64,000 nt of DNA, from NCBI GenBank assembly GCA_016929335.1, contig JAFGIY010000025.1, forward strand, positions 1 to 64,000, in the 5' to 3' direction. Position 1 is the stretch's first letter, and every line of letters starts with the position of its first letter. Source of the stretch: Acidobacteriota bacterium. Its GTDB lineage: Bacteria > Acidobacteriota > UBA6911. The position numbers and the translations under genes are program-made. The notes beneath the pieces were generated by a model. That model saw only the letters and a list, made by a program, of their open reading frames with translations. It did not search any database and was not told where the DNA came from. This document shows, piece after piece, positions 19,180 to 34,317 of the stretch.

Positions 19180-19728
19180 AATTCACAACCCGGCGGCAGG
19201 TAGAAAAATGCAGCGTATAAAAACGACTTTTCCACAGGTGTTTCCACAGCTGTGGAAAACAGAAAAATACACCCCTCAGCAAAGAGTAACGCCAGCCTTG
19301 CTGTTACCTGATAAAATGAATGTCAGGATTTCGCGTGATTCCGCGTCTTGTCCAATTCAACAACGCGCGGAAAGTTAGCATACGGAGATTGGCACATTCA
19401 ACAAAAAAAACATCTTCTGAAAAAATTTATTGAACATAAAAAATTCCCCGTAATTACGGGCATTTCAGGGCCATTCTATCCGCAAAACGCCGAAAACAAA
19501 GGGTAAAAAAAGATACGAGAAATATTAAACATCCTATAGACAAAATTGTAGGAAAATTGATCATAAATGCTCTTGACAATGCCGGAGTTGCGAAATAGCC
19601 GTACCCTGTCGGCTCCCCAGAAGGCCGGCGCCCCGGGACAGGGGGCCTAAGCTGTTAGTATGGATAATCGGGATCGGCTTGATTGCGGCTTAAGCTCTGT
19701 AAGTACGCGGTGAAAAGGATCAAGGTTT
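19180..19728. other. dnaA upstream region
   Basis: 549 bases without a gene. Near dnaA there is a cluster of DnaA boxes (19228-19259). The middle (about 19390-19560) is AT-rich. The far end holds a GC-rich inverted repeat, CCCTGTC (19604-19610) with GACAGGG (19637-19643), of unknown role, perhaps the end of the HIT-protein transcript. A lone TTGACA at 19573 has no good -10. Confidence 0.6.
19228..19259. promoter_or_regulatory. DnaA-box cluster upstream of dnaA
   Basis: Three boxes in 32 bases: TTTTCCACA (19228-19236), GTTTCCACA (19240-19248) and TGTGGAAAA (19251-19259, opposite orientation). The last two form a palindrome around CCACAGCTGTGG. It lies about 50 bases before the dnaA start. Likely for autoregulation, or as the second half of a bipartite origin. 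Confidence 0.7.
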
Positions 19729-20205
19729 TTAAAAATATGGCAGCAATCTTTGGAAGGTAGTCGGAAGCTCTTCAGGCAGGACGCGGGTTTCACCCACAAC
19801 CGAAACAAAATTCGAATCTCCGGTCCATCGAGGAAGCACGTGCATGTGAAGATGATGCTCCACACCGGCGCCGGCTGCCCGGCCGAGATTGAATCCCATA
19901 TTAAAGCCATCTGGATGGTATTCCTGCCGGAGTGCCCTCTCACAGGTGCGGCTCAACTCAATAATTTCGTGCAGTTCTTCGGAGCTTGCATCGTTCAGAG
20001 AGGCGATGTGGCGGTTTGCCACTACAAGGAGGTGGCCGGAGGTATAGGGAAACAGATTCAGAATCACAAATGCTCTCCGGCCGCGGAAGAGCAGCAGATT
20101 TGCAGCGTCGCGTGTCTCACTGAGCATCAGGCAGAAGACACACGTCGTTGCCTGATCAGCGTTGCGGAGATACTCGAAACGCCATGGAGTCCAGAGTCGA
20201 TCCAT
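19729..20205 (-). CDS. HIT-family nucleotide hydrolase/transferase
   Basis: 158 aa. The histidine triad HLHMHVLPRW is near residue 118, preceded by the usual NLFPYTSGHLLVVANRH and by FNLGRAAGAG. The N-terminal CVFC pair may bind zinc together with a later His. The Fhit/HINT-like branch acts on dinucleoside polyphosphates or AMP conjugates; the actual substrate is not shown. Its ATG overlaps the HU-gene stop by one base, so it ends the rpsA-sppA-HU operon. Confidence 0.9.
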   Translation of the reverse strand: MDRLWTPWRFEYLRNADQATTCVFCLMLSETRDAANLLLFRGRRAFVILNLFPYTSGHLLVVANRHIASLNDASSEELHEIIELSRTCERALRQEYHPDGFNMGFNLGRAAGAGVEHHLHMHVLPRWTGDSNFVSVVGETRVLPEELPTTFQRLLPYF

Positions 20206-20480
20206 TACAGATTAACGAGGTCCTTAATTTCCTTACCGGGCTTAAAATAAGGGACTTTTTTCGCCGGGACGCTGACGCCGGTACCCGTTTTGGGATTGCG
20301 GCCCTGGCGGGATGAGCGGTTGCGAATACGAAAGGACCCAAAGCCGCGCAGCTCTATCTTCTCACCGCGCTGTAGAGATTCGGTAATGCTGTCCAGAACG
20401 GTCTGGACGATCACTTCGGCGTCCTTCTTTGTCAGTTCCGATTGATTGGCAACTTCTTCAACAAGCTCTGCTTTTGTCAT
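20205..20480 (-). CDS. HU/IHF-family DNA-bending protein
   Basis: 91 aa. The sequence MTKAELVEEVA...LTKKDAEVIV and the DNA-binding arm GFGSFRIRNRSSRQGRNPKTG are typical; the R-N-P-K-T-G tip is shared by HU and IHF. A position soon after rpsA recalls the rpsA-ihfB order of proteobacteria, so it may be IHF-beta-like, but one copy here cannot decide HU versus IHF. It sits six bases after sppA. Confidence 0.93.
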   Translation of the reverse strand: MTKAELVEEVANQSELTKKDAEVIVQTVLDSITESLQRGEKIELRGFGSFRIRNRSSRQGRNPKTGTGVSVPAKKVPYFKPGKEIKDLVNL

Positions 20481-20486
20481 TACTGT

Positions 20487-21392
20487 CTATCTCCAGAGGT
20501 ATTGAAATCGGATATGGGATTCCGAACGGTCCGGATTCATGGATAAAACGGATCGGGAATCCCCGAGTAGGAGGTCTAGAATGGTAAAGCGCTTGCGCAT
20601 CGGGCTCAGAACCTTGGGCTCTCCCTGTATCCCGGCCATTTTGGCCGCTGCATTAATGGCGTCCTGCAAGGTTCCAAGTTCATCCACAAGCCCGTCTGCT
20701 TTTGCTTCTTCGCCCGTGTAGACGCGGCCGTCGGCCAGCTTGCGCACAACTTCATCCTGCATGTTGCGGCTGCTTGCGACGGCTGAAACGAACTGATTGT
20801 ACATGCTGCTGATAAGAGATTGAAAATAAACCTTTTCTTCTTCCGTCAGCGGACGTGTTGCCGATCCCGAGTCCTTAAATGTGCCGCTCTTGATGACCAC
20901 ATTCTCCATTTTAGCCCATCGGAGAAGATCGCCATAATTATACCATTCCGCGATCACGCCAATGCTGCCGGTAATGGTGCCCGGATTGGCGAAAATTCTA
21001 TCGGCGCCGCAGGCTACATAGTATCCGCCCGAAGCAGCCACGGATCCCATGCTCACGACGACTTTCTTATTCGTATCGGAGCGGAACTTTTTGATGGCTT
21101 CAAATATTTCCTGGGAGGCGGCCACTCCTCCTCCCGGACTATTTATGCGGACAACAATCGATCGTACCGTCGAGCGATTGCCGTAGTCCTTAAGCTCGTC
21201 CACAAATTCCCTGGAATCGGAGATAATGCCTTCCAGGTCAATCACGGCGACCTGGCTGGACGAAAGCGAGAGACCGGAGGAACCTTCACCCGTAAAGTAA
21301 ACTACGGCTGCAACAAAACAGAGGATGAGAAATAAGAAGGCTCCCCCTCCAACGATAATCCAGAGCAGCAGGTTTGATTTATTCTGCGGCAT
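20487..21392 (-). CDS. sppA: Signal peptide peptidase SppA, short form
   Basis: 301 aa, the single-domain form rather than the duplicated 600-aa E. coli type. An N-terminal membrane anchor (LLWIIVGGGAFLFLILCFVAAVVYF) is followed by INSPGGGVAAS, the nucleophile-bearing SMGSVAASGGYYVACGADRI, and the candidate general-base lysine in SGTFKDSGS. It degrades leftover signal peptides in the membrane. It lies 27 bases after rpsA. Confidence 0.95.
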   Translation of the reverse strand: MPQNKSNLLLWIIVGGGAFLFLILCFVAAVVYFTGEGSSGLSLSSSQVAVIDLEGIISDSREFVDELKDYGNRSTVRSIVVRINSPGGGVAASQEIFEAIKKFRSDTNKKVVVSMGSVAASGGYYVACGADRIFANPGTITGSIGVIAEWYNYGDLLRWAKMENVVIKSGTFKDSGSATRPLTEEEKVYFQSLISSMYNQFVSAVASSRNMQDEVVRKLADGRVYTGEEAKADGLVDELGTLQDAINAAAKMAGIQGEPKVLSPMRKRFTILDLLLGDSRSVLSMNPDRSESHIRFQYLWR

Positions 21393-21419
21393 CTTTAGAT
21401 TTCAAGCGGTTGCGGCGAA

Positions 21420-23216
21420 TTATTCGCTTTCCGTCTTCTTGAAACGCTGAAGCTGTTCGCCCAAACGCTCTCCCATTGAGGCGTTCCCCGAATCGGCGGA
21501 AGCCAGATAAGAAGTGAATTCGAGCCTGGGCTCGTCTTCTTTCATTGCCTTCAGGCTCAATCCTATCTTTTTCTCCTGAAGATTCAACTTGATAACCTTC
21601 ATTTCGATTTCCTGGCCGATATTGAGAAACTCCGTCGGTTTTTCCACGTGCTTCTCATCGAGCTCGGAAACATGGCACAAACCCTCGATGCCTTCCTCCA
21701 ATTCCACAAAAGCACCGAAATTGGTCATTCGAACGACTTTGCCTTTTACGATTTCACCCAGATTGTGGCGGCTGAACCAGTCTTCCCAGCGATCCGGTTC
21801 GAGCTGTTTGATGCCGAGGGAAAGCTTCTGGTTGGCCGCATCAATGCTTAGAATAACGGCCTGCACCTCGTCACCCTTCTTCAACACTTCCGAGGGGTGC
21901 TTCATCCGTTTGGTCCAGGAAATATCGGAGACATGAACCAATCCGTCGATCCCGTCCTCAACTTCTATAAAGGCGCCGAAGTCGGTAATGTTGCGGACTT
22001 TTCCAGAAATGACGGTGCCGGGGGCATAGCGGGCTTCAATAACATCCCAGGGATTGGGTTCGGTCTGTTTCAGTCCAAGCGAAATACGCCGGGATTCGAC
22101 ATCCATATCGAGAACAACCGCTTCTACCGTATCTCCTACGCTGAGAATCTTCGAAGGATGCTTTACTCTCTTGTTCCAGGTCATTTCGGAGATGTGTATC
22201 AGCCCTTCCACCCCGGGTTCCAGTTCCACGAAGGCACCGTAATCGGTCAAGCTCACTACCTTGCCTTGAACTTTCATGTTCTTGGGATAGCGCTCATCCG
22301 CATGAAGCCACGGATCTTCGGTCATCTGTTTGTACCCCAAAGAGACCCGTCCGTCTTCCTTGGTGAACTTGATGACTTTTACCGTTAGTTTATCGCCGAC
22401 AGAGAACAGCTCGGAAGGATGATTGACTCTTCCCCAGGACATATCGGTAATGTGGAGGAGGCCGTCAACGCCGCCAAGATCGATGAATGCTCCGTAGTCG
22501 GTAATGTTTTTGACAACACCTTCCATTACCTTGCCGCTCTCCAGGACCTCCATTGTTTTGGCTTTCTCTTCCTTCATGGACTCCTCGAGAACAGCCTTGC
22601 GGGAAAGAACAATGTTGCCCCGTTTCTTGTTGACCTTGATGACACGCATCTCGAATTCTTCGCCACGGAGGCTGTCCAGGTTGCGAACGGGCCGGACATC
22701 AATCTGTGATCCCGGGAGAAACGCGCGAACACCGATATCGACCGCCAGTCCTCCCTTGATCCGCTCAATAACGCGTCCCTTCACGACGCTGCCTTCGCGA
22801 TAGGCGCGCTCGATCTCGTCCCAAATCTTCATCCGTTCGGCTTTTTCCCTCGAAAGGACAACATAGCCGTTGGAATCTTCAGTCTGTTCCAGAAAAACAT
22901 CGATGGAGTCCCCCGGCTTGATGGTGATCTGACCGCGATCATTCATGAACTGCTCGACGGGAATAATCCCCTCGGATTTGAAGCCAACATCGACAATGAC
23001 TCCGCTACCCGAGATTGCAATAACCCTTCCCCGGATTACTTCGCCTTCGGAAAAACTCTGGGTTCTCCCTTCATACGCCTCCAGGAGCTTCTCGAAACTG
23101 TTTTCATCCTCTCGGGTTTCGGTTCCTGTAAGGGCTATATCCTCCTGGCTTTGAGACGCCTCCTGCCCCGAAGAATTTGCCGCTGCAGGCTGCGTTTTGT
23201 TGACATCGAATGACAT
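21420..23216 (-). CDS. rpsA: 30S ribosomal protein S1
   Basis: 598 aa with six S1 RNA-binding domains. Recognisable repeats are GVIVDVGFKSEGIIP, GGLAVDIGVRAFLPGSQ, GAFIDLGGVDGLLHITDMSWGR, then GAFVELEPGVEGLIHISEMTW, GAFIEVEDGIDGLVHVSDISW and GAFVELEEGIEGLCHVSELD. It helps mRNA bind the 30S subunit. AGGAGGAG precedes the ATG, and a candidate sigma-70 promoter lies about 180 bases upstream, leaving a leader long enough for autoregulation as known in E. coli. Confidence 0.98.
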   Translation of the reverse strand: MSFDVNKTQPAAANSSGQEASQSQEDIALTGTETREDENSFEKLLEAYEGRTQSFSEGEVIRGRVIAISGSGVIVDVGFKSEGIIPVEQFMNDRGQITIKPGDSIDVFLEQTEDSNGYVVLSREKAERMKIWDEIERAYREGSVVKGRVIERIKGGLAVDIGVRAFLPGSQIDVRPVRNLDSLRGEEFEMRVIKVNKKRGNIVLSRKAVLEESMKEEKAKTMEVLESGKVMEGVVKNITDYGAFIDLGGVDGLLHITDMSWGRVNHPSELFSVGDKLTVKVIKFTKEDGRVSLGYKQMTEDPWLHADERYPKNMKVQGKVVSLTDYGAFVELEPGVEGLIHISEMTWNKRVKHPSKILSVGDTVEAVVLDMDVESRRISLGLKQTEPNPWDVIEARYAPGTVISGKVRNITDFGAFIEVEDGIDGLVHVSDISWTKRMKHPSEVLKKGDEVQAVILSIDAANQKLSLGIKQLEPDRWEDWFSRHNLGEIVKGKVVRMTNFGAFVELEEGIEGLCHVSELDEKHVEKPTEFLNIGQEIEMKVIKLNLQEKKIGLSLKAMKEDEPRLEFTSYLASADSGNASMGERLGEQLQRFKKTESE

Positions 23217-23538: not shown

Positions 23539-24507
23539 ATGCCTGGACATGGTGTCCGGCTTTGGCAGAGCGCCAAACGTTCCGGCCCAATGCTCCTGGA
23601 CGAGCAATGGCAAAATTATAATTTGATGCTTAATTTACTGAAATCCAGCCTGTTGCTTCCGATCGCCATGATAATCCAGGGCTCCATGCTGCCTGACCGT
23701 CTTTGGCAGGGGGGCCCGCCGCCTGCCGCAAAACTCGCCTGCGAACTGAAAATTGTGAGCTGGAATATTGAACGCGGAGAGAAATTGTCGGATGTGGCGG
23801 CAGCCCTGAAACAGATGAACCCATCGATTGCGCTCCTCCAGGAGTGTGATATGAATGCCCGGCGGACAGACAATAAAAACATCGCGGAGGAGCTGGCGCT
23901 GCAGCTGGGCTTGCATTATCTCTTTGCGGCGGAATTCGAGGAACTCGGGCAGGGCGTCCGCGGCAGGCCTGCGTATCATGGACAGGCACTCCTGACGGCT
24001 TTGCCGTTTTCATCCGTCCGCATTATCCGGTTTCAAGAGCAAACAAAACACTGGCAGCCCCGCTGGTATCTCCCGAATTGGGCAGTTTTTCAGAGAAGGT
24101 TTGGCGGGCGTCTGGCTCTCGTCATGGAGCTGGGGACAGGTCCTCATCGCCTTGTAGCTTACAACGTTCACCTGGAGAGCAGGGGAGGCGAGGAGCGTCG
24201 CCTGCGCCAGATAGAGGAAGTGATTGCCGATGCGCGGCGATACGCAAGCGATACGCCCATCCTGATAGCCGGGGACTTGAATACGCGACAGGCGAATCCG
24301 TCCGCGGTCAACGCTCTGCTCAAAGCGGGATTCCGCAAGGCGGCAGGCCAGGAGATTACGACAACCCATGGAACCGCTCTGGATTGGATCTTTGTACGCG
24401 GTCCTTTGAGTTACCAAAATGCTGAAGTCCATCGGCAAGTGCGGGCGTCTGATCATTTTCCGTTGTCCGTTCAGCTCAGATTTCAGACGCCGGACTGTCG
24501 GCAATGA
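23539..24507 (+). CDS. Endonuclease/exonuclease/phosphatase-family protein, exported or membrane-anchored
   Basis: 322 aa. AGGA lies five bases before the ATG at 23539; internal ATGs at 23590 and 23626 lack ribosome sites. A hydrophobic segment LLKSSLLLPIAMIIQGSML near residue 34 suggests a membrane anchor or signal. The EEP metal site is complete: IVSWNIERG, ALLQECD, YNVHLES, LIAGDLNTR, TALDWIFVR and RASDHFPL. It hydrolyses a phosphodiester or phosphomonoester of unknown kind. The gene opens a plus-strand group with the barrel and kinase-like genes, 75 bases before the barrel gene. Confidence 0.88.
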   Translation: MPGHGVRLWQSAKRSGPMLLDEQWQNYNLMLNLLKSSLLLPIAMIIQGSMLPDRLWQGGPPPAAKLACELKIVSWNIERGEKLSDVAAALKQMNPSIALLQECDMNARRTDNKNIAEELALQLGLHYLFAAEFEELGQGVRGRPAYHGQALLTALPFSSVRIIRFQEQTKHWQPRWYLPNWAVFQRRFGGRLALVMELGTGPHRLVAYNVHLESRGGEERRLRQIEEVIADARRYASDTPILIAGDLNTRQANPSAVNALLKAGFRKAAGQEITTTHGTALDWIFVRGPLSYQNAEVHRQVRASDHFPLSVQLRFQTPDCRQ

Positions 24508-24582: not shown

Positions 24583-25839
24583 ATGCGCATGAAAATTTTC
24601 CTGGTTGCAGCCCTGGCTTTGATGGCGGCAACTTCCCGCGCCGCCGCCCAGACGCGAACCGATGAGATCGATGCCGGGCGCGATAAAAAAGCCCAAACCC
24701 TGCAAGAGGAGAATGTCAGCCGCCTGGAATTTCTTATGCTCCAGTTCAAGCAGCGCAAGGTGATGGAGCGCATCACTGCCGGATACAACGGATTGCGGAT
24801 ACAGATGGGCAGCCTGGCAACAGGAAGCGGCTTTGCGGGCGGACCGGATTTTCTCCGCGAAGATATTCTGGACGGCCAATTGCACGTCAATGCTTCGGCA
24901 GTCGTTTCGACGCGTCTGTGGCAGAAGTACCAGGCCGGCATAACGGCGCCCCACCTTGCCGGGAATCATCTCCTTTTGAAAATGGAGGCGGCCAGGAGAG
25001 ATTATCGATCCCTGGAATTTTATGGCACGGGCATGGATTGCCGGCGCTCATGCCGCACGAATTATCGCCTGGAAGATACCAGCCTCGATGGCAGCGCAGC
25101 TTTCCGGATGGCCCGGTTTATCCGGTTTGGAGGTACTTTGGGGGGATTGTGGACCAATGTACGACGGGGAGAGCGTGAAGATCTGTCGAGCACAGACGAG
25201 CTTTTCACGGATGCATCCGCCCCGGGCTTGCTGCATCAGGCGAATTTTCTGCGTGCAGGTCTTTTCGGCCAGATCGATTACCGGGATGATCCGACCGGAC
25301 CGAAATCCGGCGGGAATTACGTCTCCGAATATACCTGGTACCACGACCGGTCGCTCGGTCAATTCAGTTTCGACCGCTTGGACGTGGACATGCAGCAGTA
25401 TATTCCCTTCTTCAACAAAAGCCGGCGATTCGCTCTCCGCGTACGGATGACGATGACCGACGCGGATGCCGGGCAACGCATGCCGTTTTACCTGCAACCC
25501 TATGTCGGGGGAGCGGACGACTTGCGGGGCTTCAAACCCTACCGGTTTACCGCCCCCAATGCCGTAGTCTACAACGCGGAATACCGGTGGGAAATATTCT
25601 CCGGACTGGATGGCGCATTGTTTTTCGATGCCGGGAAAGTGATGTCCCGCTGGAGTCACATGGGCATGTCCGGCCTGGAGACCTCTCCGGGATTTGGATT
25701 GCGGTTTAATGCCCGGAATCGTACGTTCATTCGACTGGATGTCGGTTTCAGCAGGGAGGGCGCCTGCATATGGCTGAAATTCAACGATCCCTTTACACCG
25801 CTTTTGTTCGGCGCCGGAACCCGGCAGCCTTTATACTGA
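24583..25839 (+). CDS. BamA/surface-antigen (D15)-like outer-membrane beta-barrel without POTRA domains
   Basis: 418 aa from the ATG at 24583, with AGAAAGG five bases upstream. A signal peptide MKIFLVAALALMAATSRAAAQ opens the protein. After a short helical segment the rest is alternating amphipathic strand. The BamA/FhaC-type lid-loop motif is visible as VGGADDLRGFKPYRF near residue 330, followed by YNAEYRWEIF and a C-terminal barrel. POTRA repeats are absent at this length. Ten bases separate it from the kinase-like gene, so the two are very likely cotranscribed. A translocation role is possible but unproven. Confidence 0.83.
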   Translation: MRMKIFLVAALALMAATSRAAAQTRTDEIDAGRDKKAQTLQEENVSRLEFLMLQFKQRKVMERITAGYNGLRIQMGSLATGSGFAGGPDFLREDILDGQLHVNASAVVSTRLWQKYQAGITAPHLAGNHLLLKMEAARRDYRSLEFYGTGMDCRRSCRTNYRLEDTSLDGSAAFRMARFIRFGGTLGGLWTNVRRGEREDLSSTDELFTDASAPGLLHQANFLRAGLFGQIDYRDDPTGPKSGGNYVSEYTWYHDRSLGQFSFDRLDVDMQQYIPFFNKSRRFALRVRMTMTDADAGQRMPFYLQPYVGGADDLRGFKPYRFTAPNAVVYNAEYRWEIFSGLDGALFFDAGKVMSRWSHMGMSGLETSPGFGLRFNARNRTFIRLDVGFSREGACIWLKFNDPFTPLLFGAGTRQPLY

Positions 25840-25849
25840 GGATGGATTT

Positions 25850-27451
25850 ATGAAACGTCTCGCCGGAATCATGGTCTTGATTGCGGTCTGCGCGGGAGAT
25901 GGGCTGTGCCGCAAATTCTACGACGACGATCCATTATTTCGCGAGCCTCAGCCGCGCGCGGTTTCGAATCCTGCCGTGCGAAAACTGAGCGATTACTTCG
26001 ATATCCTGAAGCATACATTGAACACGCCGGGAGAAAAGCAGCGCAAAGGACACCTCATCGCCGCTCAGGGCATAAACACGCTGGGCGATCCGATGGAAGG
26101 TGCATGGTGGGAAAAGCGGCACTATTGGCGGCGTATGACACCCGCTGAGCTCCAGCGCGGGCCCGGCGGGGATCATGAACCGGCGATGGACGGCCGATGG
26201 AAGGTGATTGCGGCAAAAACGGAGGGGATCACACCCGGCTTTGTGATACTGGATCGAAACGACAGGCGGTATTTCGTGAAATTTGATCCGCCCTCCAATC
26301 CGGAAATGGCAACCGGCGCCGACCAGATCGCGTCCAAAATATTCTATGCGCTTGGCTATCATGTTCCCGAAAACTATGTCGTGTTTTTTCACCCCGATAT
26401 GCTCGACCTTGGCGAAGATGTAACGGTCGAGGACAAGCTCGGGCACAAACGCAAAATGACCGGGCGGGATCTCACGGAGATACTGCTTCGCGTGCATAAA
26501 GGGAGCGATGGCCGCTATCGTGCTACGGCAAGCCTGGCCTTGCCCGGCAAGACCATCGGGCCCTATCGCTACTACGACACGCGAAAGGACGATCCCAATG
26601 ATATAGTGCCGCATGAGCACCGCCGCGATCTCCGCGGCATGCATTTGGCCTGCGCCCTCGTGAATCATGATGATTCGCGCTCCATTAACACCGTCGATGT
26701 ACTGGAGGACGGTCCGTCGGGCAAGTTCGTGAAGCATTACCAGCTGGATTTTGGATCAACCCTTGGCAGCGGCAGCGACAAAGTCAACAGCCCGCGGTCA
26801 GGCGGCGAATATCTGTTCGGCTGGAAACAGGCTGCTGTTCAGCTTGTTACTCTCGGGCTGGCGGTTCCTGGGTGGGCACGAGCTTCCTACCCGAACCTGA
26901 AGGCTGTGGGCCGCTTCGAAAGCGCGATGTTTGATCCCGAAAAATGGGTCCCGGAATATCCGAATCCCGCATTCCTGAACCGCCTTCCCGACGATGAATT
27001 CTGGATGGCAAAGCAGATTGTCAGCCTGAGGGACGAGGATTTGCGAAGCATCGTGAAGGTCGCACAATACAGTGATCAGCGTGCCGAGGACTGGATCAGC
27101 CGCTGCCTGATTGAGCGGCGCGATAAGATAGGCCGCGCGGCTTTTGCCAAAGTTCTGCCGCTGGACCGCTTCAAGCTGCAGGACGGACGCCTGGAATGGG
27201 TGGATGTTGCCGCCGCGTACGGCCTCGGCAAAGCTCCCGAAATACATGTTCGCTGGGCGAAATTTGATAACGAGCACGAGACTGCCGCGATGCTGCCGGA
27301 CGAAAACTCTGCGCGATTGCCGCAAATGCACGAAGACGGTTATTGGATGGCAACGCTCGCTTCGCCGGTGCGTCCCGGACAGACTGTTAAAGTGTATGTT
27401 CGCAGGCGCAGCGCGCAGGAGCAAATTGTCGGCATCGATTATACCTTTTAG
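25850..27451 (+). CDS. Secreted protein with protein-kinase-like motifs, no named family recognised
   Basis: 533 aa. The start MKRLAGIMVLIAVCAGDGLC looks like a signal peptide. Residues 120-310 show the order of a kinase fold: RRYFVKFDPPSN with K144, a helix GADQIASKIFYALGY, then NHDDSRSIN (H273, D275, N280 spaced as HxDxxxxN) and QLDFG (D300-F301-G302). HipA, Fam20 and CotH kinases share this logic, but no known family matches clearly. A C-terminal ~100 residues look like a separate beta domain. The partner upstream is an outer-membrane barrel. Kinase activity is an inference from motif order. Confidence 0.7.
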   Translation: MKRLAGIMVLIAVCAGDGLCRKFYDDDPLFREPQPRAVSNPAVRKLSDYFDILKHTLNTPGEKQRKGHLIAAQGINTLGDPMEGAWWEKRHYWRRMTPAELQRGPGGDHEPAMDGRWKVIAAKTEGITPGFVILDRNDRRYFVKFDPPSNPEMATGADQIASKIFYALGYHVPENYVVFFHPDMLDLGEDVTVEDKLGHKRKMTGRDLTEILLRVHKGSDGRYRATASLALPGKTIGPYRYYDTRKDDPNDIVPHEHRRDLRGMHLACALVNHDDSRSINTVDVLEDGPSGKFVKHYQLDFGSTLGSGSDKVNSPRSGGEYLFGWKQAAVQLVTLGLAVPGWARASYPNLKAVGRFESAMFDPEKWVPEYPNPAFLNRLPDDEFWMAKQIVSLRDEDLRSIVKVAQYSDQRAEDWISRCLIERRDKIGRAAFAKVLPLDRFKLQDGRLEWVDVAAAYGLGKAPEIHVRWAKFDNEHETAAMLPDENSARLPQMHEDGYWMATLASPVRPGQTVKVYVRRRSAQEQIVGIDYTF

Positions 27452-27595: not shown

Positions 27596-29752
27596 TTATG
27601 TCGCAGGCTTCTTGTCGATCAGCAGCATAAGAGATTCGTGGGAGCGAAGCAGCTTATCCAGGGCTTCCTGGCCCGAATCGCCTGTCTGCCTCTTCTGTGC
27701 CAGTCCGGGTTCCACCATAATCCACAGGCGTTCACGGATATTTGGCGGAAGGATGCTGTCCAGATACTCCGCGACGAGACCGCGCAGAGTCTTATTATCC
27801 GTATGCAATACGCGGAAGGCGATCTTGATCGGTTCGCGCGGCAGAACCGTAGCGAAAAGCGAAAAGACATGTTCAAGGCTTTGATCGGCGCGTTCGCGCA
27901 GAACTTCGTCCAGAAAGGCATGCTGATCCGAATCCGGGCGCTTATCAAGCAGGCGACGGGAGTTCCAGATCGGATGAGCAACCTGAAGCTCGCGCTCCAC
28001 CGCTGCAAAGACAACGCTCTTTGGAACCTCGAGGTCGGGTCGGCGCAAGAGAAGAGTATCCAGCGCGCGTGAACACTGAAATCGAACCTCAAACCGTTTG
28101 TCTTCCAGGCCGGCCAGCAGGGCGTGAACCGCCAGCTGGGAATCACAATAAGCCAGGATTCTGGGTATCCGGCGGCGAATGCCAAATGGGATATCCGGAT
28201 TGGTGAGATGATCTGCAAGCATCCCGGTGATCGGATTCGGATGCCGCTGCAGTATTTCGCGGATTGCGTCGCTGACCTCGTCCCAGGCAAGCAGGCGCAG
28301 CATCTGAGCCGCAACCGGCGGTGAAGGCCGGCTGATATTTTTTAAAGCGGCCAGTATCCGGTGGCTGTCTCCGGAGCGGAGCTCGCGGATGGTGTCGAGG
28401 ATCTCATCGGTCGTCCGGACGGCCGCCGTGGAAATCTTTGGCGGTTCAGTTTTCGGAGCTGAGGATGGAACCGCGACTCGTACAAACACGCTGCGAGTCG
28501 TGGAATCCTTGATGTCGCTCAGATCGATTTCAACAGCGCGGTCGACCAGTCTTTGCTGAACCAGTTTGGAATAGGCCGAATCGAGTCTCAATGAGATCCA
28601 GGCCCCCAGCGCTGCAAGTATCAGCGCTACTCCCAGAAGCTCTGAAGCAGCAAAAGGAGTGGAAGCCCACAGGAGCAATTGCACGATTCCGCCGCCCAGT
28701 GCATCGCCCGCCCGGTCGCAGGCGACGTCGATCAGAGTCTTTGCCGAGCGCTTCTCGGCCGGGGGCACAGGGGTATAGAGCAGTTCATAGGCGGACCGGT
28801 ACAAGGAGCCGCGCAATATGAACTCCAGAGAGCGGATCAAAGTGAACGCCGGGAAGACCGGGAACAGCAAAGCGACCAGAGAGCCTGCCCCCACACCGGC
28901 GGGTAATGAAGAAATCGTCTTCCCGATCCCCAGGCGCTGGAGGGCCGGGCGTGCCAGAAATGTCTGGGCGAGGAAAGTGAGCCCCTGGGTCGCAATATAG
29001 AAAATTGCAAAAAACCGGAGCAGTGCGGCTCCCTTGCCGAACATCCCGCTTGCGCCGGCTTTGAAAAGGTAGTCCAGGATGACGGCTGATGAAGTTCCGG
29101 CCAGCACCACCAGGGCGATCATTCCAAGATAGGGGGCACGCTTTATCAGCTTTATGGGCGATATCCCATTGATTTTAGGTTCAACGGAAGGCGCTTGTTC
29201 AGCCCGGCGCGCAGACATCAGGACAACGGAGCACGCCAGATGAAACGCTGCCAGGAGAAGCAGCACGCCGGTTGCGTAAGAAAGGGCAGCCATGCGTTCG
29301 GCAAGCACGCCTCCTGCAATGCCGCCCAGTGTGCCGAATCCCGCGATCCGGCCGAAAGCTTCCTTCGCCGCACGGGGATCAAACGCTTCCGCCATGACCG
29401 ACCAGAAGCCTGAAAGCAGAATTGCGCCGAAAGCCACTATGTGAAAGTAGATGACGAGCGACCATTCAGCCGGGTGGCTTTGCGCATGAAGATACTCCAC
29501 GATATGCAGGATTGAGCTCAGCAGAAATCCCAGCGGAACGACCCGCAACGGGCCAAAGCGTCCAATCAGGCGCGCGAAAATCGGAACCAGAGCTATGGAT
29601 ATTGCGGCCGCCGCCATGATTGCCTTTGGCAGGTCCGAGGCCGGGTAGTTGGAAAGAAAGAATGAGTCGCGTACCGCTTTCCCCGCGACCTGATGAGCCA
29701 GCATCAAGGCGGCTCCCATCATGGCTATGAATGCAGTCCTTTTACCCGACAA
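27596..29752 (-). CDS. Npt1/Npt2-like nucleotide-carrier-type membrane protein with HEAT repeats
   Basis: 718 aa. Residues 1-420 are a multi-helix carrier (about 11-12 TM segments) with the opening KAVRDSFFLSNYPASDLP typical of the bacterial Npt/ATP-ADP-carrier-like group. Residues ~440-690 form alpha-helical HEAT-like repeats (for example GIRRRIPRILAYCDSQLAVHAL and FEVRFQCSRALDTLL), predicted cytoplasmic. Relatives in free-living bacteria have no proven substrate, so ATP transport should not be assumed. It starts 15 bases after the membrane kinase gene, suggesting kinase control of the carrier. Confidence 0.8.
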   Translation of the reverse strand: MSGKRTAFIAMMGAALMLAHQVAGKAVRDSFFLSNYPASDLPKAIMAAAAISIALVPIFARLIGRFGPLRVVPLGFLLSSILHIVEYLHAQSHPAEWSLVIYFHIVAFGAILLSGFWSVMAEAFDPRAAKEAFGRIAGFGTLGGIAGGVLAERMAALSYATGVLLLLAAFHLACSVVLMSARRAEQAPSVEPKINGISPIKLIKRAPYLGMIALVVLAGTSSAVILDYLFKAGASGMFGKGAALLRFFAIFYIATQGLTFLAQTFLARPALQRLGIGKTISSLPAGVGAGSLVALLFPVFPAFTLIRSLEFILRGSLYRSAYELLYTPVPPAEKRSAKTLIDVACDRAGDALGGGIVQLLLWASTPFAASELLGVALILAALGAWISLRLDSAYSKLVQQRLVDRAVEIDLSDIKDSTTRSVFVRVAVPSSAPKTEPPKISTAAVRTTDEILDTIRELRSGDSHRILAALKNISRPSPPVAAQMLRLLAWDEVSDAIREILQRHPNPITGMLADHLTNPDIPFGIRRRIPRILAYCDSQLAVHALLAGLEDKRFEVRFQCSRALDTLLLRRPDLEVPKSVVFAAVERELQVAHPIWNSRRLLDKRPDSDQHAFLDEVLRERADQSLEHVFSLFATVLPREPIKIAFRVLHTDNKTLRGLVAEYLDSILPPNIRERLWIMVEPGLAQKRQTGDSGQEALDKLLRSHESLMLLIDKKPAT

Positions 29753-29767: not shown

Positions 29768-31378
29768 TTATTCCTCATTCAATGAGAGAGGTTCCACGCT
29801 CCTCAATCTGCGCGCCATCCTGTATGAAGACGACTCCGGCAGATACGTCTGCCACCATTCGGCGGCGTCCTCCTGCGTCCATTTCTCCGCGCCGCAGTCC
29901 GCGAACAGGCTTTCCAGCTCCAGCGCCGTCTGCGGCCGGTCCTCCGCCTTCTTGGCGAGGCAGCGCAAAATGATCTGTTCGAGCCGGGAGGGAATCTGCA
30001 TTTCGCTTCGCTGCGAGGGCGGCACAGGCTCCTTTTGCACGTGCGCCAGAGCTGTGGCGGTGGCTGTTTTTTCGGTGAATACCGGAGAGCCCGTCAGCAG
30101 AAAATAGGCTACACATCCGAGCGCATAAATATCAACCCGTCCATCGATCCCATCTTCTCCCATAGCGAGTTCAGGCGCCATATAAGCGGGAGTACCCGCC
30201 GATGCGCCCTCGAGCGTGAGCTGGAGGGAATCCTTCGGCGAAAGATTTTTAACCAGGCCGAAGTCGAGAACCTTCATGAAATCGTGTTCGATGCCGATTT
30301 TGCAGGCGAAAATGTTGCTGGGTTTAATGTCGCGGTGCACCAGGCCCCGCCTGTGTGCTTCTTCGAGGGAATGGCAAACCTGCCGCAGGATATGAACGAG
30401 ACGGGATGCGGGTTGAGGCCCATATTTGTCCACAAGCATCTGCAGGCTGATGCCGTCCAGAAGCTCCATAACATAATAGAACGTTCCGTCACGGGATACG
30501 CCGAAGTCGAAGAGATAGACGGTATGAGGAGATTGAAGCGAGGCGATCGCCTGGGCTTCGCGCTTAAAACGCTTGCGGGCGACATCCGACTGGTATCCGG
30601 GCTTTCCCATCAACAGATCGCTGCGGATAAGCTTGATGGCAGCATCGCGCGCCAGCATCCGGTGCTGTGCCCTCCATACTTCCCCCATTCCTCCGGAACC
30701 GATGAGGGATACCAGATTATAAGAACCCAGATCACGCGCTTTCTGGGCGGCGGCTTCCATGACATAGATCCGCTTCGCCAGCGCGTAGGTCACAAATGCC
30801 ATTAGATAAGGCACATGGATCCAGACCAGTAGGCGTTTAAGCTCTACGGCCGCATATCCATGCAGATTAAGATTCAGCGCATAAGCCAGCGGCCACATTG
30901 ATGCCGAAATAAATGCAACGGCCAGCTTCGTCTTCGGCCTGTTCGGGATCAGCAATCCAACAACGGCAATCCATAGAGCTACCTTTGGAATTCCCAGTAC
31001 AGGCCCATGCTCACACAGAGGAACTGCAGTCTCCGCCAGACTGATGGCAAAAGCGACCAGAACCTCGAAAACCAGGCCGAGGTTTAATATGGTCATGGGC
31101 GGCAGCAGCCTTAAATGGCGGATGATGCCTATGGCCAGAGTAAAAAGGAGCACGAAAGACCACGTTAAATATACAGGGGCATTCATCATCCTTTCGATAA
31201 TTTCAGGTTGCAGAATACTCTGAAAAATCGCAGAGAATGCGGCCAGAACAACGCATAGAAGACAAATCCAATAAAGACGCACTACCGCATCTTCCGCCAT
31301 CTTGGGTGCAAGCGTCTGTTTTGCGGATGAATCTGTCTGTATGTCCAGCGGCTCATTGGTATGTACAAGCTGCGGCAT
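29768..31378 (-). CDS. Membrane Ser/Thr protein kinase with N-terminal multi-TM sensor
   Basis: 536 aa. Residues 30-205 hold about six hydrophobic segments, an unusual N-terminal placement: most bacterial PknB-type kinases carry one TM after the kinase. The kinase domain follows with IGSGGMGEVW (226-235), catalytic K249, HRDIKPSN (348-355) and DFG (372-374); all key residues are present. The C-terminus ends soon after the kinase lobe. It phosphorylates Ser/Thr of unknown targets; the cotranscribed Npt-like carrier is an obvious candidate. Confidence 0.92.
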   Translation of the reverse strand: MPQLVHTNEPLDIQTDSSAKQTLAPKMAEDAVVRLYWICLLCVVLAAFSAIFQSILQPEIIERMMNAPVYLTWSFVLLFTLAIGIIRHLRLLPPMTILNLGLVFEVLVAFAISLAETAVPLCEHGPVLGIPKVALWIAVVGLLIPNRPKTKLAVAFISASMWPLAYALNLNLHGYAAVELKRLLVWIHVPYLMAFVTYALAKRIYVMEAAAQKARDLGSYNLVSLIGSGGMGEVWRAQHRMLARDAAIKLIRSDLLMGKPGYQSDVARKRFKREAQAIASLQSPHTVYLFDFGVSRDGTFYYVMELLDGISLQMLVDKYGPQPASRLVHILRQVCHSLEEAHRRGLVHRDIKPSNIFACKIGIEHDFMKVLDFGLVKNLSPKDSLQLTLEGASAGTPAYMAPELAMGEDGIDGRVDIYALGCVAYFLLTGSPVFTEKTATATALAHVQKEPVPPSQRSEMQIPSRLEQIILRCLAKKAEDRPQTALELESLFADCGAEKWTQEDAAEWWQTYLPESSSYRMARRLRSVEPLSLNEE

Positions 31379-31517: not shown

Positions 31518-31859
31518 TTAGGGGACCCATAGTACCATTCGAGACTTCCTGCGGAGTTCTTTTGAAAGCTCCTTGACCGATCCGTACTTCATGCAGTTGG
31601 CCATGCAGTGCTTCACGCAGGCCGGCTCGAGACCTTCCTTCGTGAGGTGTGGGCACAGGATACAGGCCTCGGTTGGGAAAGGGAAGTAGGTGAGATACAT
31701 GCTGCCGTCGGGCAGCTTCTGCTCGACTTCAAATACTTTGATGCCCCGAATCCCCACCTTGTGCTTGTACTCCTGGGCGCAGGAGACCTCGCAGCTGTGG
31801 CATCCGGTGCAATATTCATAATCTATCAATAGACCGAACTCCGGCTTTTTCTTTTTCAT
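31518..31859 (-). CDS. Ferredoxin-like electron-transfer subunit (two 4Fe-4S)
   Basis: 113 aa from the ATG at 31859, two bases after the stop of the Mo/W gene; an overlapping ATG at 31868 is the alternative. A DmsB/NrfC-like pattern: CTGCHSCEVSC near residue 15, then CILCP...CVKHCMANC further on, enough for two cubanes. Short compared with DmsB, which carries four clusters. It probably passes electrons to or from the Mo/W subunit. No Tat signal, so the complex is cytoplasmic. Confidence 0.88.
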   Translation of the reverse strand: MKKKKPEFGLLIDYEYCTGCHSCEVSCAQEYKHKVGIRGIKVFEVEQKLPDGSMYLTYFPFPTEACILCPHLTKEGLEPACVKHCMANCMKYGSVKELSKELRRKSRMVLWVP

Positions 31860-31860
31860 G

Positions 31861-34317
31861 CTATTCATCCCGGACTTTATATACTTTGCACAAAAGGTTT
31901 TTGATTGGAGCGCCCAACCCGTCTTTCCCCTGGCTTCCCATGGGGATCAGCTGGTTGATGTTTGATTTCCAGGCGCCGAAAAGCGATGGCTCCGCTCCGT
32001 CCTCCTCGGGGAACCACCACCCATGGGCGGCCATCACCATCTGCGGAAGGATGGCAATAGTCAGCTTTGCCTTGAACTGCTGTCTTCCGAGCCAGTTTTC
32101 AACCCACACCCATTCCCCATCGCCGATGCCGAGGCTTTTCGCGGTATCCGGATGAATTTCCAGCGTGGGATCCGGATCGATTTCGCGCAGCCATGGAATC
32201 ATCCGGTGCTCCGCGTTGAAAAATGCGAAGGAGCGCCTGCCGGTGGAAAGAATTAACGGATATTCTTTTGCGAGATCGGGCCTGCTTACCGGCGTGAACG
32301 GCGGCTCTTCGTAATGAGGAAGGGGCTCCAGCCCCCACTCTTCGCGGAGAATGGAGTAAAGCTCCACCTTGCCCGACGCGGTTTCGAAGCCGGGCTTTCC
32401 GTCCTTGCGCAACAGCCCTTTTTCATGCCGGCGATAAGGAGCGCTCGGGTTTCCTTCCGGAGGGATGACCCAGGTTTTTTTCTGCAATTCTTTGAAGCGC
32501 ATGCCCGAATTCTGAAGGATGGAGTCGAACAATTGCTCGACTGACTTCCACCGCAGATTCGGATCGAATCTGCGCGCCAGCTCGAAGTTTATTTCCACAT
32601 CCGGCTTGCAGCCTTCAACCGAAAGAGCTTTGTTGATTGTCTGCAGAGGAACCCACCAGCTCCTGACGCTGTCCTTTTCAAGGAAAGTGGCTGCCGGGAG
32701 AATGACATCCGCATACTGGGTAGTGGGCGTCATGAACAGGTCAACGGCTGCGATAAAATCAATCTTCTTGAAAGCATCGCGCCACTTCTTCGGCTCAAAG
32801 CCGATGCCGGCGATCAGGTTTCCGGTTTGCATCCAGAGGGCTTTTACCGGATACGGTTTTTCCGAAAAAATCTGATCGAGGACTGTGTCTGTCTGGGTTC
32901 GCCAGATAAATTTTCTGAAGGGTCCGTATTTGTCGATGCCGATCCTCGGCTTGTCCGCTTCCTTCGAGGACAGGCGGATGACGCCTTCAGCGCCGGGCAG
33001 GGCATAGGAAACGCATTCGAATGCATTCCGCGCGATCACGTTCCCGCCGGGAACTTCGAGATTGCCGGTAATGCACCATAGCGCCGTAATCGCCTGGGCT
33101 GTCGGCGTGATGCCGGGAGTCGAATCGATCGGCAATCCCCAGTGTATGGAGGCAGGCTTGCTCTGCGCGAAGAACCGCGCCGCTGCCTGAATATCCTTCT
33201 TGGGAACCTGTGTGATTTCCGATACGCGCTCCAGCGGATATTCGTTTACCTGCTCGCAGAAGGCATCCCATACGGTCCGGCATTCGACTTTAGCGCCATC
33301 CGTAAGGCTGACGGAGTGCCTGCCGCTCAACGACGGTTTGGGATTGCCGGAGCGATACTCCGCTTTTGCCGATTCCCAAACCACGGCTTGCTTTTTCTTG
33401 CTGTCCCAGACAATGAAGTTGTCAGGACTCGCATCCTTGATCAGGTCGGATTCCCGCAACAGCTTGCCCGTGTCTTTCCTGACGAGGAAAGGTGCATTCG
33501 TCCATTTTTCGACAAACTTGTGGTCGTAGAGATCCTCATTAATGATGACGTTGAGAAAGCCCATCGCAAGGGCGCCATCCGTACCGGGCCGGAGCCTGAG
33601 CCAATGCTTGGCTCTGGAAGAAAGCCACGTCAGCCTGGGATCAATGGAGACAATTTCTACGCCCCGCTTCATCAGGTCGACGAGCCAATGACCGAATATA
33701 TTGTCGGGGCATGTATTCGGGAGGCTGTAGCCCCAGATGACGATGCATTTCGGGAGCTTATACTTCGGATCGTCGTAGCGCTTCTCCAGCCACTGCGCCG
33801 CGTCGAAAACGCAGTAATCGCCCAAGACTGTTTCGACGGCTGCTATTCTCGGGCTGTAGCAGGCGTTTCCGCTGAGGGCGAACATGACGTTCGGGCTGCC
33901 ATAGGCATAGGCAAGCATGCAGAGCCAGGGACTGATGTCTCGGCCGGTCCCCATGCTGAATACCGCGCTTTGAGGGCCGAATTCCTTGCGGATCCTGACC
34001 ATCCTTTCTTCGATAAGGTTGTATGCCTCTTCCCAGGAGATCTCCTGCCATTTCCCTTCTCCACGCTCTCCTGCCCGCTTCAGCGGGCGGGTCAGGCGGT
34101 CGGGATGATAGATGTACTGAGTCATAGCGAGGCAGCGTGCGCACAGCCGGCCCTGGTTCCACGGATGTTTCGGGTCGCCTTCTATTTTGACGAGCTTGCC
34201 CTTCCTGATATGCGCCAGAACGCCGCAGGTTCCATGACAGCCCGGGCCGGCGGACCAGACCGTCGTCCGGACAATGTCTGTGTCTGCAGATCTGGGTTTT
34301 GCTTTAAATCCGGCCAA
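31861..34317 (-). CDS. Mo/W-bis-MGD oxidoreductase, acetylene-hydratase-like branch
   Basis: 818 aa of the DMSO-reductase superfamily. The Fe-S site is atypical: GPGCHGTCG (C27, C31) and GRLCARC (C59, C62), with valine at position 20 where related proteins have cysteine. SGNACYSPR places C153 as the likely metal ligand. The tail ASGKVELYS...KEYPLIL...DGEWVWVEN resembles acetylene hydratase and its relatives, but the aligned C141 of that enzyme is leucine here, so acetylene hydration is not implied. The Fe-S gene follows with overlap, and a corrinoid gene precedes it by 47 bases. The reaction is unknown. Confidence 0.88.
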   Translation of the reverse strand: MAGFKAKPRSADTDIVRTTVWSAGPGCHGTCGVLAHIRKGKLVKIEGDPKHPWNQGRLCARCLAMTQYIYHPDRLTRPLKRAGERGEGKWQEISWEEAYNLIEERMVRIRKEFGPQSAVFSMGTGRDISPWLCMLAYAYGSPNVMFALSGNACYSPRIAAVETVLGDYCVFDAAQWLEKRYDDPKYKLPKCIVIWGYSLPNTCPDNIFGHWLVDLMKRGVEIVSIDPRLTWLSSRAKHWLRLRPGTDGALAMGFLNVIINEDLYDHKFVEKWTNAPFLVRKDTGKLLRESDLIKDASPDNFIVWDSKKKQAVVWESAKAEYRSGNPKPSLSGRHSVSLTDGAKVECRTVWDAFCEQVNEYPLERVSEITQVPKKDIQAAARFFAQSKPASIHWGLPIDSTPGITPTAQAITALWCITGNLEVPGGNVIARNAFECVSYALPGAEGVIRLSSKEADKPRIGIDKYGPFRKFIWRTQTDTVLDQIFSEKPYPVKALWMQTGNLIAGIGFEPKKWRDAFKKIDFIAAVDLFMTPTTQYADVILPAATFLEKDSVRSWWVPLQTINKALSVEGCKPDVEINFELARRFDPNLRWKSVEQLFDSILQNSGMRFKELQKKTWVIPPEGNPSAPYRRHEKGLLRKDGKPGFETASGKVELYSILREEWGLEPLPHYEEPPFTPVSRPDLAKEYPLILSTGRRSFAFFNAEHRMIPWLREIDPDPTLEIHPDTAKSLGIGDGEWVWVENWLGRQQFKAKLTIAILPQMVMAAHGWWFPEEDGAEPSLFGAWKSNINQLIPMGSQGKDGLGAPIKNLLCKVYKVRDE

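What the first reader, a model, noticed from the sequence alone, without database searches (positions are those of the whole stretch)
24583..27451. Outer-membrane barrel paired with a secreted kinase-like protein
A POTRA-less BamA-like barrel is followed after ten bases by an exported 533-aa protein with K144, HxDxxxxN (273-280) and DFG (300-302) in the right order. A kinase acting outside the cytoplasm next to a barrel, with an EEP-family phosphodiesterase upstream, could be a surface-phosphorylation or secretion system. I recognise no named family for the kinase-like protein.
Basis: partly seen in the sequence, partly recalled or inferred. Interest (0 to 1): 0.75.

Follow-up and report, generated by a model that had tools for sequence, protein, structure and literature searches.

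The report
Exported kinase, outer-membrane barrel, ATP carriers
Bacteria of the phylum Acidobacteriota carry a gene pair encoding an exported kinase-fold protein and an outer-membrane barrel, often beside ATP/ADP-carrier-type genes, which suggests phosphorylation outside the cytoplasm with its own ATP supply.

Summary
Window 24583-25839 encodes a 16-stranded Omp85 barrel without POTRA domains. Ten bases later, 25850-27451 encodes an exported 533-aa protein (KLP) whose AlphaFold2 model (pLDDT 91.4) matches atypical kinases: CtkA and Fam20-type, more weakly HipA. Four putative catalytic residues are all intact in 106 of 117 homologues. It meets no Pfam or NCBIfam cut-off. The barrel is upstream of 119 of 122 KLP ORFs, and a distant relative is fused to a barrel in one reading frame.

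New here: the pair is linked to NTT (TLC) ATP/ADP-carrier-like genes. With flanks cut to 1.5 kb, 36 of 119 KLP loci have one against 1 of 90 control loci. In the window the next two genes encode an NTT-HEAT protein and a Ser/Thr kinase. PAP2 and metallophosphatase genes recur nearby.

Best reading: an envelope phosphorylation system in which the kinase works at the barrel and NTT carriers export ATP to it. Fold, export signal, pairing and linkage are computed; kinase activity, ATP export, docking and substrate are inferred. Periplasm or surface stays open.

The parts
24583..25839 (+). POTRA-less Omp85 outer-membrane barrel with an apparent signal peptide (alternative start TTG 24532)
   Evidence: PF01103 58.2 bits; 16-strand model, pLDDT 88.7; TamA/BamA barrels in the PDB
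24652..24729 (+). N-terminal helical segment of the barrel, consensus TRxxxIxxxRxxKAxxLxPxxxSxxE (residues 24-49 from ATG 24583)
   Evidence: conserved in A2; scored in 103 of 113 barrels beside a KLP (68 of 78 outside the training loci) and 0 of 15 other barrels
25850..27451 (+). KLP: exported kinase-fold protein of the HipA/CtkA/Fam20 kind, 533 aa, with a C-terminal beta-rich region (about residues 438-533)
   Evidence: AF2 pLDDT 91.4, pTM 0.91; Foldseek to CtkA and Golgi casein kinase/Fam20C; hhalign to HipA_2 proteins E 1.6e-7
25850..25912 (+). apparent signal peptide of KLP (about residues 1-21)
   Evidence: hydrophobic stretch before the FYxDDP-type motif in 113 of 115 homologues; helix 2-13 in the model
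26279..26281 (+). codon of K144, putative ATP-binding lysine
   Evidence: K in 109 of 118
26666..26689 (+). H273-x-D275-x4-N280, putative catalytic loop
   Evidence: D275 in 114 and N280 in 116 of 118; aligned with the HipA_2 loop
26747..26755 (+). D300-F-G302, putative metal-binding motif
   Evidence: D300 in 118 of 118
23539..24507 (+). EEP-family phosphodiesterase, upstream companion in few loci
   Evidence: PF03372 65.6 bits; EEP ORF within 6 kb in 5 of 119 KLP loci
27596..29752 (-). NTT-HEAT protein: TLC ATP/ADP-carrier domain with a HEAT-like C terminus, convergent with KLP
   Evidence: PF03219 29.8 bits, cut-off 21; HEAT_2 below its cut-off, E 0.02
29768..31378 (-). Ser/Thr protein kinase with an N-terminal hydrophobic region, next to NTT-HEAT
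   Evidence: PF00069 138.8 bits; relatives of its N-terminal region in 19 ORFs of the KLP loci, this one included

Best explanation
Barrel and KLP form one envelope unit. KLP is exported by a signal peptide, stays associated with the outer-membrane barrel (perhaps through the barrel's N-terminal helix) and phosphorylates an envelope substrate: the barrel itself, another protein, or a glycan or lipid. Because the periplasm is held to have no ATP of its own (recalled), NTT carriers in the inner membrane exchange cytoplasmic ATP for ADP and so feed the kinase; neighbouring PAP2, metallophosphatase or EEP enzymes reverse the mark or recycle the product. Computed: kinase fold, export signal, conserved catalytic residues, pairing, one kinase-barrel fusion in a relative, NTT linkage. 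Inferred: catalytic activity, physical contact, direction of ATP transport, substrate.
For: Fold: AF2 pLDDT 91.4; the 8 Foldseek matches at E<=0.001 are CtkA, 'Golgi casein kinase' (Fam20 family, recalled) and DrFam20C1; 7vkb (HipA-type) E 4e-3 and HipA 4pu5 E 8e-3 follow. Sequence: hhalign of A1 with 22 HipA_2 proteins 93.9%, E 1.6e-7, with K144, the D..N loop and DFG in register. Residues: 106 of 117 intact. Export: 113 of 115 against 1 of 42. Pairing: barrel upstream of 119 of 122 KLP ORFs; 49 of 50 KLP genomes have a barrel at E<=1e-30 against 27 of 247 others. Unit: L228 2515-4692 carries an apparent signal peptide, a group II kinase and an Omp85 barrel in one frame; group II is homologous to KLP at 99.1%, E 1.2e-18. 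ATP supply: NTT ORF in 36 of 119 KLP loci with flanks cut to 1.5 kb against 1 of 30 HipA_2, 0 of 30 HipA_C and 0 of 30 group II loci with like flanks, and 0 of 12 barrel loci without KLP; 31 of 119 directly downstream on the same strand; 46 of the 48 linked proteins scanned match PF03219 and their profile finds ADP/ATP carriers 9j3n (5.2e-39) and 9j3j (1.1e-34). Genomes: 45 of 50 KLP genomes have a TLC match against 50 of 247 others.
Against: No activity, localisation or transport was measured. No NTT within 6 kb in 56 of 119 loci (some flanks are short) and no Pfam TLC match in 5 of 50 KLP genomes. The genome counts are not corrected for phylogeny. Characterised NTTs import nucleotides. K144 is replaced in 9 of 118; L041, L045 and L152 have lost more and look like pseudokinases. 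Barrels related to this one occur without KLP, and only 2 of 30 group II loci have a barrel within about 1.5 kb, one of them the fusion. Foldseek E-values are modest (best 2.4e-4; TM 0.30 by query, 0.52-0.54 by target for CtkA).
Confidence: 0.55

Rival explanations
1. Secretion system: the barrel moves the kinase to the cell surface or medium, as a type Vd (PlpD-like) or TpsB barrel does for its passenger, and the kinase acts on other cells or extracellular matter, like CtkA.
For: Constant pair, Omp85 fold, N-terminal kinase with C-terminal barrel in the fusion L228, and CtkA, a 'proinflammatory kinase' by its PDB title, as best fold match. Type Vd and TPS architecture is recalled.
Against: The barrel has no POTRA, which known TPS and type Vd exporters have (recalled). 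NTT linkage fits an ATP need at the producing cell better than in a target's cytosol.
Confidence: 0.2
2. Nucleotide or organic-phosphate scavenging unit: phosphatases release phosphate, the barrel is an uptake channel, NTT imports nucleotides, and KLP is a nucleotide-binding sensor or salvage kinase.
For: Within 6 kb: NTT in 63, metallophosphatase in 24, PAP2 in 19 and EEP in 5 of 119 loci; NTTs of intracellular parasites import nucleotides (PMC5381601, abstract and passages).
Against: Catalytic residues intact in 106 of 117 argue against a pure sensor; the barrel is Omp85-type rather than a porin; PAP2 enzymes usually act on lipid phosphates (recalled).
Confidence: 0.15
3. KLP uses the kinase fold for another chemistry, such as AMPylation or phosphorylation of a glycan or lipid in envelope synthesis, with the barrel assembling or inserting the product.
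For: Kinase folds of this clan act on proteins, sugars and lipids (recalled); PAP2 genes recur; the 6 homologues that lost only K144 keep K123.
Against: No computed feature favours one substrate class; no SelO match in Pfam.
Confidence: 0.1

Closest known systems
CtkA of Helicobacter pylori (PDB 3akj/3akk)
   Same: best Foldseek match, HipA-like kinase fold; secreted (recalled)
   Different: 275-288 residues, 12-14% identity; no barrel partner known to me; KLP adds an N-terminal FYxDDP region and a C-terminal beta-rich region
Fam20-type Golgi casein kinase (PDB 4kqa/4kqb; 5yh0)
   Same: second-best fold match; a kinase of the secretory pathway that needs ATP carried across a membrane (recalled)
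   Different: eukaryotic, 8-12% identity; no Pfam Fam20C match
HipA_2 / HipA kinases (PF20613, PF07804)
   Same: profile similarity to HipA_2 with the catalytic motifs in register
   Different: curated cut-offs not met; HipA_C profile does not align (1.6%); no signal-like N terminus in 41 of 42 such proteins
'noNterm' Omp85 proteins (PMC4104836, one passage seen)
   Same: Omp85 barrel without N-terminal POTRA
   Different: KLP-linked barrels carry a conserved N-terminal helix; the passage names no kinase partner
NTT nucleotide transporters of free-living bacteria, incl. NTT-HEAT (PMC5381601, abstract and passages seen)
   Same: same family, same NTT-HEAT architecture
   Different: the passages call the functions of the fusions unknown and mention no kinase-barrel neighbourhood

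Membership tests
HipA_2 (PF20613) | Pfam gathering score 27 bits | tested here: not met
   window KLP not listed at E<=1; 12 of 39 homologues match at E<=0.1, best E 5.8e-4; own-genome paralogue 19.7 bits
HipA_2 (PF20613) | catalytic Lys, D..N loop and the later Asp in register | tested here: met
   hhalign of A1 with 22 HipA_2 proteins (of 30 loci), 93.9%, E 1.6e-7
HipA toxin (PF07804 HipA_C) | Pfam gathering score 30.5 bits | tested here: not met
   3 of 39 at E<=0.1, best 8.1e-5; 16.6 bits for L073; hhalign with 20 HipA_C proteins 1.6%
Fam20C, CotH and SelO families of Pfam | match to the Pfam models | tested here: not met
   not listed for KLP at E<=1 nor for 39 homologues at E<=0.1
Atypical kinase fold (CtkA/Fam20/HipA clan) | kinase fold | tested here: met
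   AF2 and Foldseek
Atypical kinase fold (CtkA/Fam20/HipA clan) | phosphotransfer from ATP | not testable with these tools
   needs biochemistry
Omp85 superfamily | Omp85 domain score and 16-strand barrel | tested here: met
   58.2 bits against 24; 16 strands; TamA/BamA matches
BamA / TamA / TpsB subfamilies | POTRA domains | tested here: not met
   only helices before residue 71; BamA and TamA NCBIfam cut-offs not met
NTT (TLC, PF03219) | Pfam gathering score 21 bits | tested here: met
   window NTT-HEAT 29.8 bits; 46 of 48 linked proteins scanned match at E<=0.001
NTT (TLC, PF03219) | adenine nucleotide exchange | not testable with these tools
   needs a transport assay

The most novel reading that the evidence does not exclude
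A bacterial counterpart of the Golgi's lumenal kinase system: a dedicated NTT carrier exports ATP into the periplasm to fuel a Fam20/CtkA-like kinase docked on an outer-membrane Omp85 barrel, giving ATP-dependent phosphorylation of the cell envelope, controlled by a membrane Ser/Thr kinase and reversed by exported phosphatases.
Probability: 0.4. Interest if true: 0.93.

Novelty: categorically new. Interest (0 to 1): 0.8.

Why it matters
The periplasm is taken to lack ATP (recalled), so ATP-dependent kinases are not expected there; and NTT carriers of free-living bacteria, NTT-HEAT above all, are largely without known function (PMC5381601, passages). A conserved barrel-kinase-NTT gene set makes both questions testable in one system. 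Named genomes to start from: Bryobacterales bacterium F-183, whose KLP is followed by an NTT gene after 3 bases (L108), and Edaphobacter aggregans DSM 19364, with two KLP copies but no NTT seen in the one locus fetched (L124). The novelty rating is for the system as a whole; each part belongs to a known superfamily.

Tried and rejected
EEP as a core part: rejected, EEP ORF within 6 kb in 5 of 119 loci. HipA-type toxin: cut-offs fail and the protein looks exported; I did not look for HipB. Sequence search of the PDB with the KLP profile: 3 chains at E<=10, best 0.72, pyruvate carboxylase. Plasmids: no match. Neighbour clustering of raw ORFs was swamped by antisense ORFs and replaced by strand-aware extraction and HMMs built here. 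A mixed alignment for modelling the kinase-barrel fusion (A4) placed barrels on the kinase and was not used; the second structure job went to the barrel. 'Barrel always with a kinase': rejected, of 14 other barrel loci with a separate barrel gene only L219 and L223 have a kinase of this kind beside it. First NTT control was uneven (KLP loci had longer flanks): 50 of 119 within 1.5 kb by ORF ends became 36 of 119 with flanks cut as in the controls; I use the lower figure; the odds stay. One control place is in two control sets (L173 and L212). Breadth beyond Acidobacteriota could not be tested: 485 relatives confirmed in GTDB contigs, but only the best 79 loci returned, 78 labelled Acidobacteriota and one a MAG called Arcobacter (L102). 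A FastTree tree gave at least 24 changes of NTT linkage over 99 labelled rows, 50 linked; not compared with shuffled labels.

Rows left out: A1 holds 39 of the 42 KLP ORFs (without L041, L045 and the short second KLP of L050); A2 35 of 39 barrels; A5 48 of the NTT proteins near 63 loci (length limits, one repeat, and L131 and L141 not given); the HipA_2 and HipA_C profiles 22 and 20 of 30 loci each.

Literature: in what searches listed (open-licence PMC only; some lists capped, such as 12 of 373) I saw no paper on this gene set.
Full report
Observation. The genome has a second copy of the pair at G000:C102 (KLP identity 44%, barrel 36%), followed by a PAP2 phosphatase gene that overlaps the end of the KLP gene.

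Family. The window KLP has no Pfam hit better than E 0.11 and no NCBIfam hit at E<=1. In 297 Acidobacteriota-phylum genomes 54 match at E<=0.001 and 50 at E below 1e-20; the other four (G009, G025, G092, G285) carry the related group II proteins. In GTDB contigs 485 relatives were confirmed and 79 loci returned. I worked on the window plus 117 loci (L034-L073, L076-L152; L074 and L075 repeat L035 and L036): 122 KLP ORFs, 119 after removal of 3 repeats.

Fold. AlphaFold2 on 39 homologues gave pLDDT 91.4 and pTM 0.91. Foldseek against the PDB (509 matches at E<=10, 50 shown) ranks CtkA (3akk, E 2.4e-4) and the Golgi casein kinase (4kqa, E 3.3e-4) first; the 8 matches at E<=0.001 are these two and DrFam20C1; 7vkb and HipA follow, then RIO2, IRE1 and VPS34 weakly. 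hhalign with 22 HipA_2 proteins gave 93.9%, E 1.6e-7, with K144, the D..N loop and D300 in register; HipA_C gave 1.6% and the barrel control 0.8%. The curated cut-offs of HipA_2 and HipA_C are not met, so KLP is not filed in those families.

Catalytic residues. K144 in 109, D275 in 114, N280 in 116 and D300 in 118 of 118; all four in 106 of 117. Of the 11 others, 6 lost only K144 (to E, Q or S; K123 kept) and 5 lost D275 or N280; three of these (L041, L045, L152) also have R for K144 and C-terminal extensions of several hundred residues and look like pseudokinases.

Export. A hydrophobic stretch precedes the FYxDDP-type motif in 113 of 115 (4 of 119 without a placeable motif) against 1 of 42 HipA_2/HipA_C proteins.

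Pairing. A barrel lies upstream on the same strand of 119 of 122 KLP ORFs: 114 within the distance rule, 3 behind very long KLP ORFs, 2 where the KLP is the second of a tandem (L096, L129). Two KLPs sit at contig edges and one (L151) has the barrel downstream. By genome, 49 of 50 KLP genomes (not G069) and 27 of 247 others have a barrel at E<=1e-30 (counted by hand). The barrel model has 16 strands, helices 25-39, 47-57 and 60-66 and no POTRA; PDB matches are TamA and BamA. The helix 25-39 motif scores in 103 of 113 KLP-linked barrels (68 of 78 outside the training loci; 4 of the 10 misses are cut by a contig end) and in 0 of 15 other barrels, among them two beside group II kinases and the fusion. 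The other barrels are also more distant, so this may only reflect descent.

Related kinases. A second exported group (mostly 310-365 aa) is in 33 of 297 genomes and homologous to KLP (99.1%, E 1.2e-18); its K, D, N and D are invariant in the 9 rows of A3. Two lie directly behind a barrel (L219, L223), and L228 encodes an apparent signal peptide, a group II kinase and an Omp85 barrel in one open frame (Pfam sees only the Omp85 part). But in 30 group II loci with about 1.5 kb flanks only 2 show a barrel, the L223 place and the fusion. The fusion is a single case; it is the best evidence that kinase and barrel can work as one unit.

NTT linkage. With an HMM built here, 63 of 119 KLP loci have a TLC/NTT ORF within 6 kb (62 at E<=1e-15), 50 within 1.5 kb and 36 within 300 bases; 31 lie directly downstream on the same strand, 14 of the listed ones overlapping KLP by 4 or 7 bases. 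Flanks cut to 1.5 kb as in the controls: 36 of 119, against HipA_2 1 of 30, HipA_C 0 of 30 and group II 0 of 30; barrel loci without KLP, about 4 kb flanks where the contig allowed, 0 of 12. Of 48 linked proteins scanned 46 match PF03219 at E<=0.001; the profile finds the ADP/ATP carriers 9j3n and 9j3j over most of their length. Linkage occurs in 13 of 23 family codes among L034-L073. By genome 45 of 50 KLP genomes have a TLC match against 50 of 247 others (counted by hand; Fisher p 4e-21; not corrected for phylogeny). At strict positions (NTT directly downstream; NTT-HEAT and Ser/Thr kinase convergent beyond): all three in 13 of 119, NTT-HEAT plus Ser/Thr kinase in 4 (the window among them), NTT alone in 11, NTT plus NTT-HEAT in 3, NTT-HEAT alone in 1, none in 87. 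Pfam confirms the window's NTT-HEAT and Ser/Thr kinase.

Phosphatases. Within 6 kb: PAP2 in 19, metallophosphatase in 24, EEP in 5 of 119; NTT or any of these in 75 of 119. With flanks cut to 1.5 kb: PAP2 11, metallophosphatase 13, EEP 1 of 119, against PAP2 0 of 90 and metallophosphatase 3 of 90 control loci, all 3 in group II.

Mechanism. Export puts a kinase-fold enzyme with a conserved active site outside the cytoplasm; barrel and fusion place it at the outer membrane; NTT linkage offers the ATP. Phosphotransfer, docking, transport direction and substrate are inference.

Literature. PMC5381601 (abstract and passages): NTTs occur in free-living bacteria, and the functions of the NTT fusions are called unknown. 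PMC4104836 (one passage): 'noNterm' Omp85 proteins might act in membrane protein biogenesis. PMC9758233 (passages): Legionella kinases with HipA and FAM20/CotH groups; no such gene set in what I saw.

Noticed in passing
L228 2515-4692 (+): natural fusion of apparent signal peptide, group II kinase and Omp85 barrel in one open frame; a metallophosphatase-like ORF lies near the locus start
   Followed up: partly
L041, L045, L152: KLPs with degraded active-site residues and C-terminal extensions of several hundred residues; the piece of L152 scanned has no significant Pfam match
   Followed up: partly
L128 7293-9302 (+): the NTT ORF behind KLP runs on in frame into a signal-like stretch and the start of an EEP-like protein, then ends; an NTT-EEP fusion or a broken EEP gene
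   Followed up: no
L139 3344-4444 (+): a further kinase-like protein with an apparent export signal, upstream of a KLP locus, with sub-threshold PI3_PI4_kinase, HipA_2 and FAM198 matches and SCO1664-family similarity
   Followed up: partly
L129, L096, L050: tandem KLP copies or tandem barrel-KLP pairs
   Followed up: no
L151 5983-8897 (+): the one locus of those scanned where the barrel follows the KLP
   Followed up: no
window 17860-23216 (-): the pair lies beside what look like core genes (DnaA, HIT, HU/IHF, SppA and S1-type proteins, named by eye, not searched); parts recur in a few KLP loci
   Followed up: no
window 31518-34317 (-): genes that look by eye like a molybdopterin oxidoreductase and its iron-sulfur subunit follow the Ser/Thr kinase gene
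   Followed up: no
L102: a MAG contig labelled Arcobacter carries the KLP-NTT-NTT-HEAT-kinase array (KLP 54% identical to the window's); the label is probably wrong
   Followed up: partly
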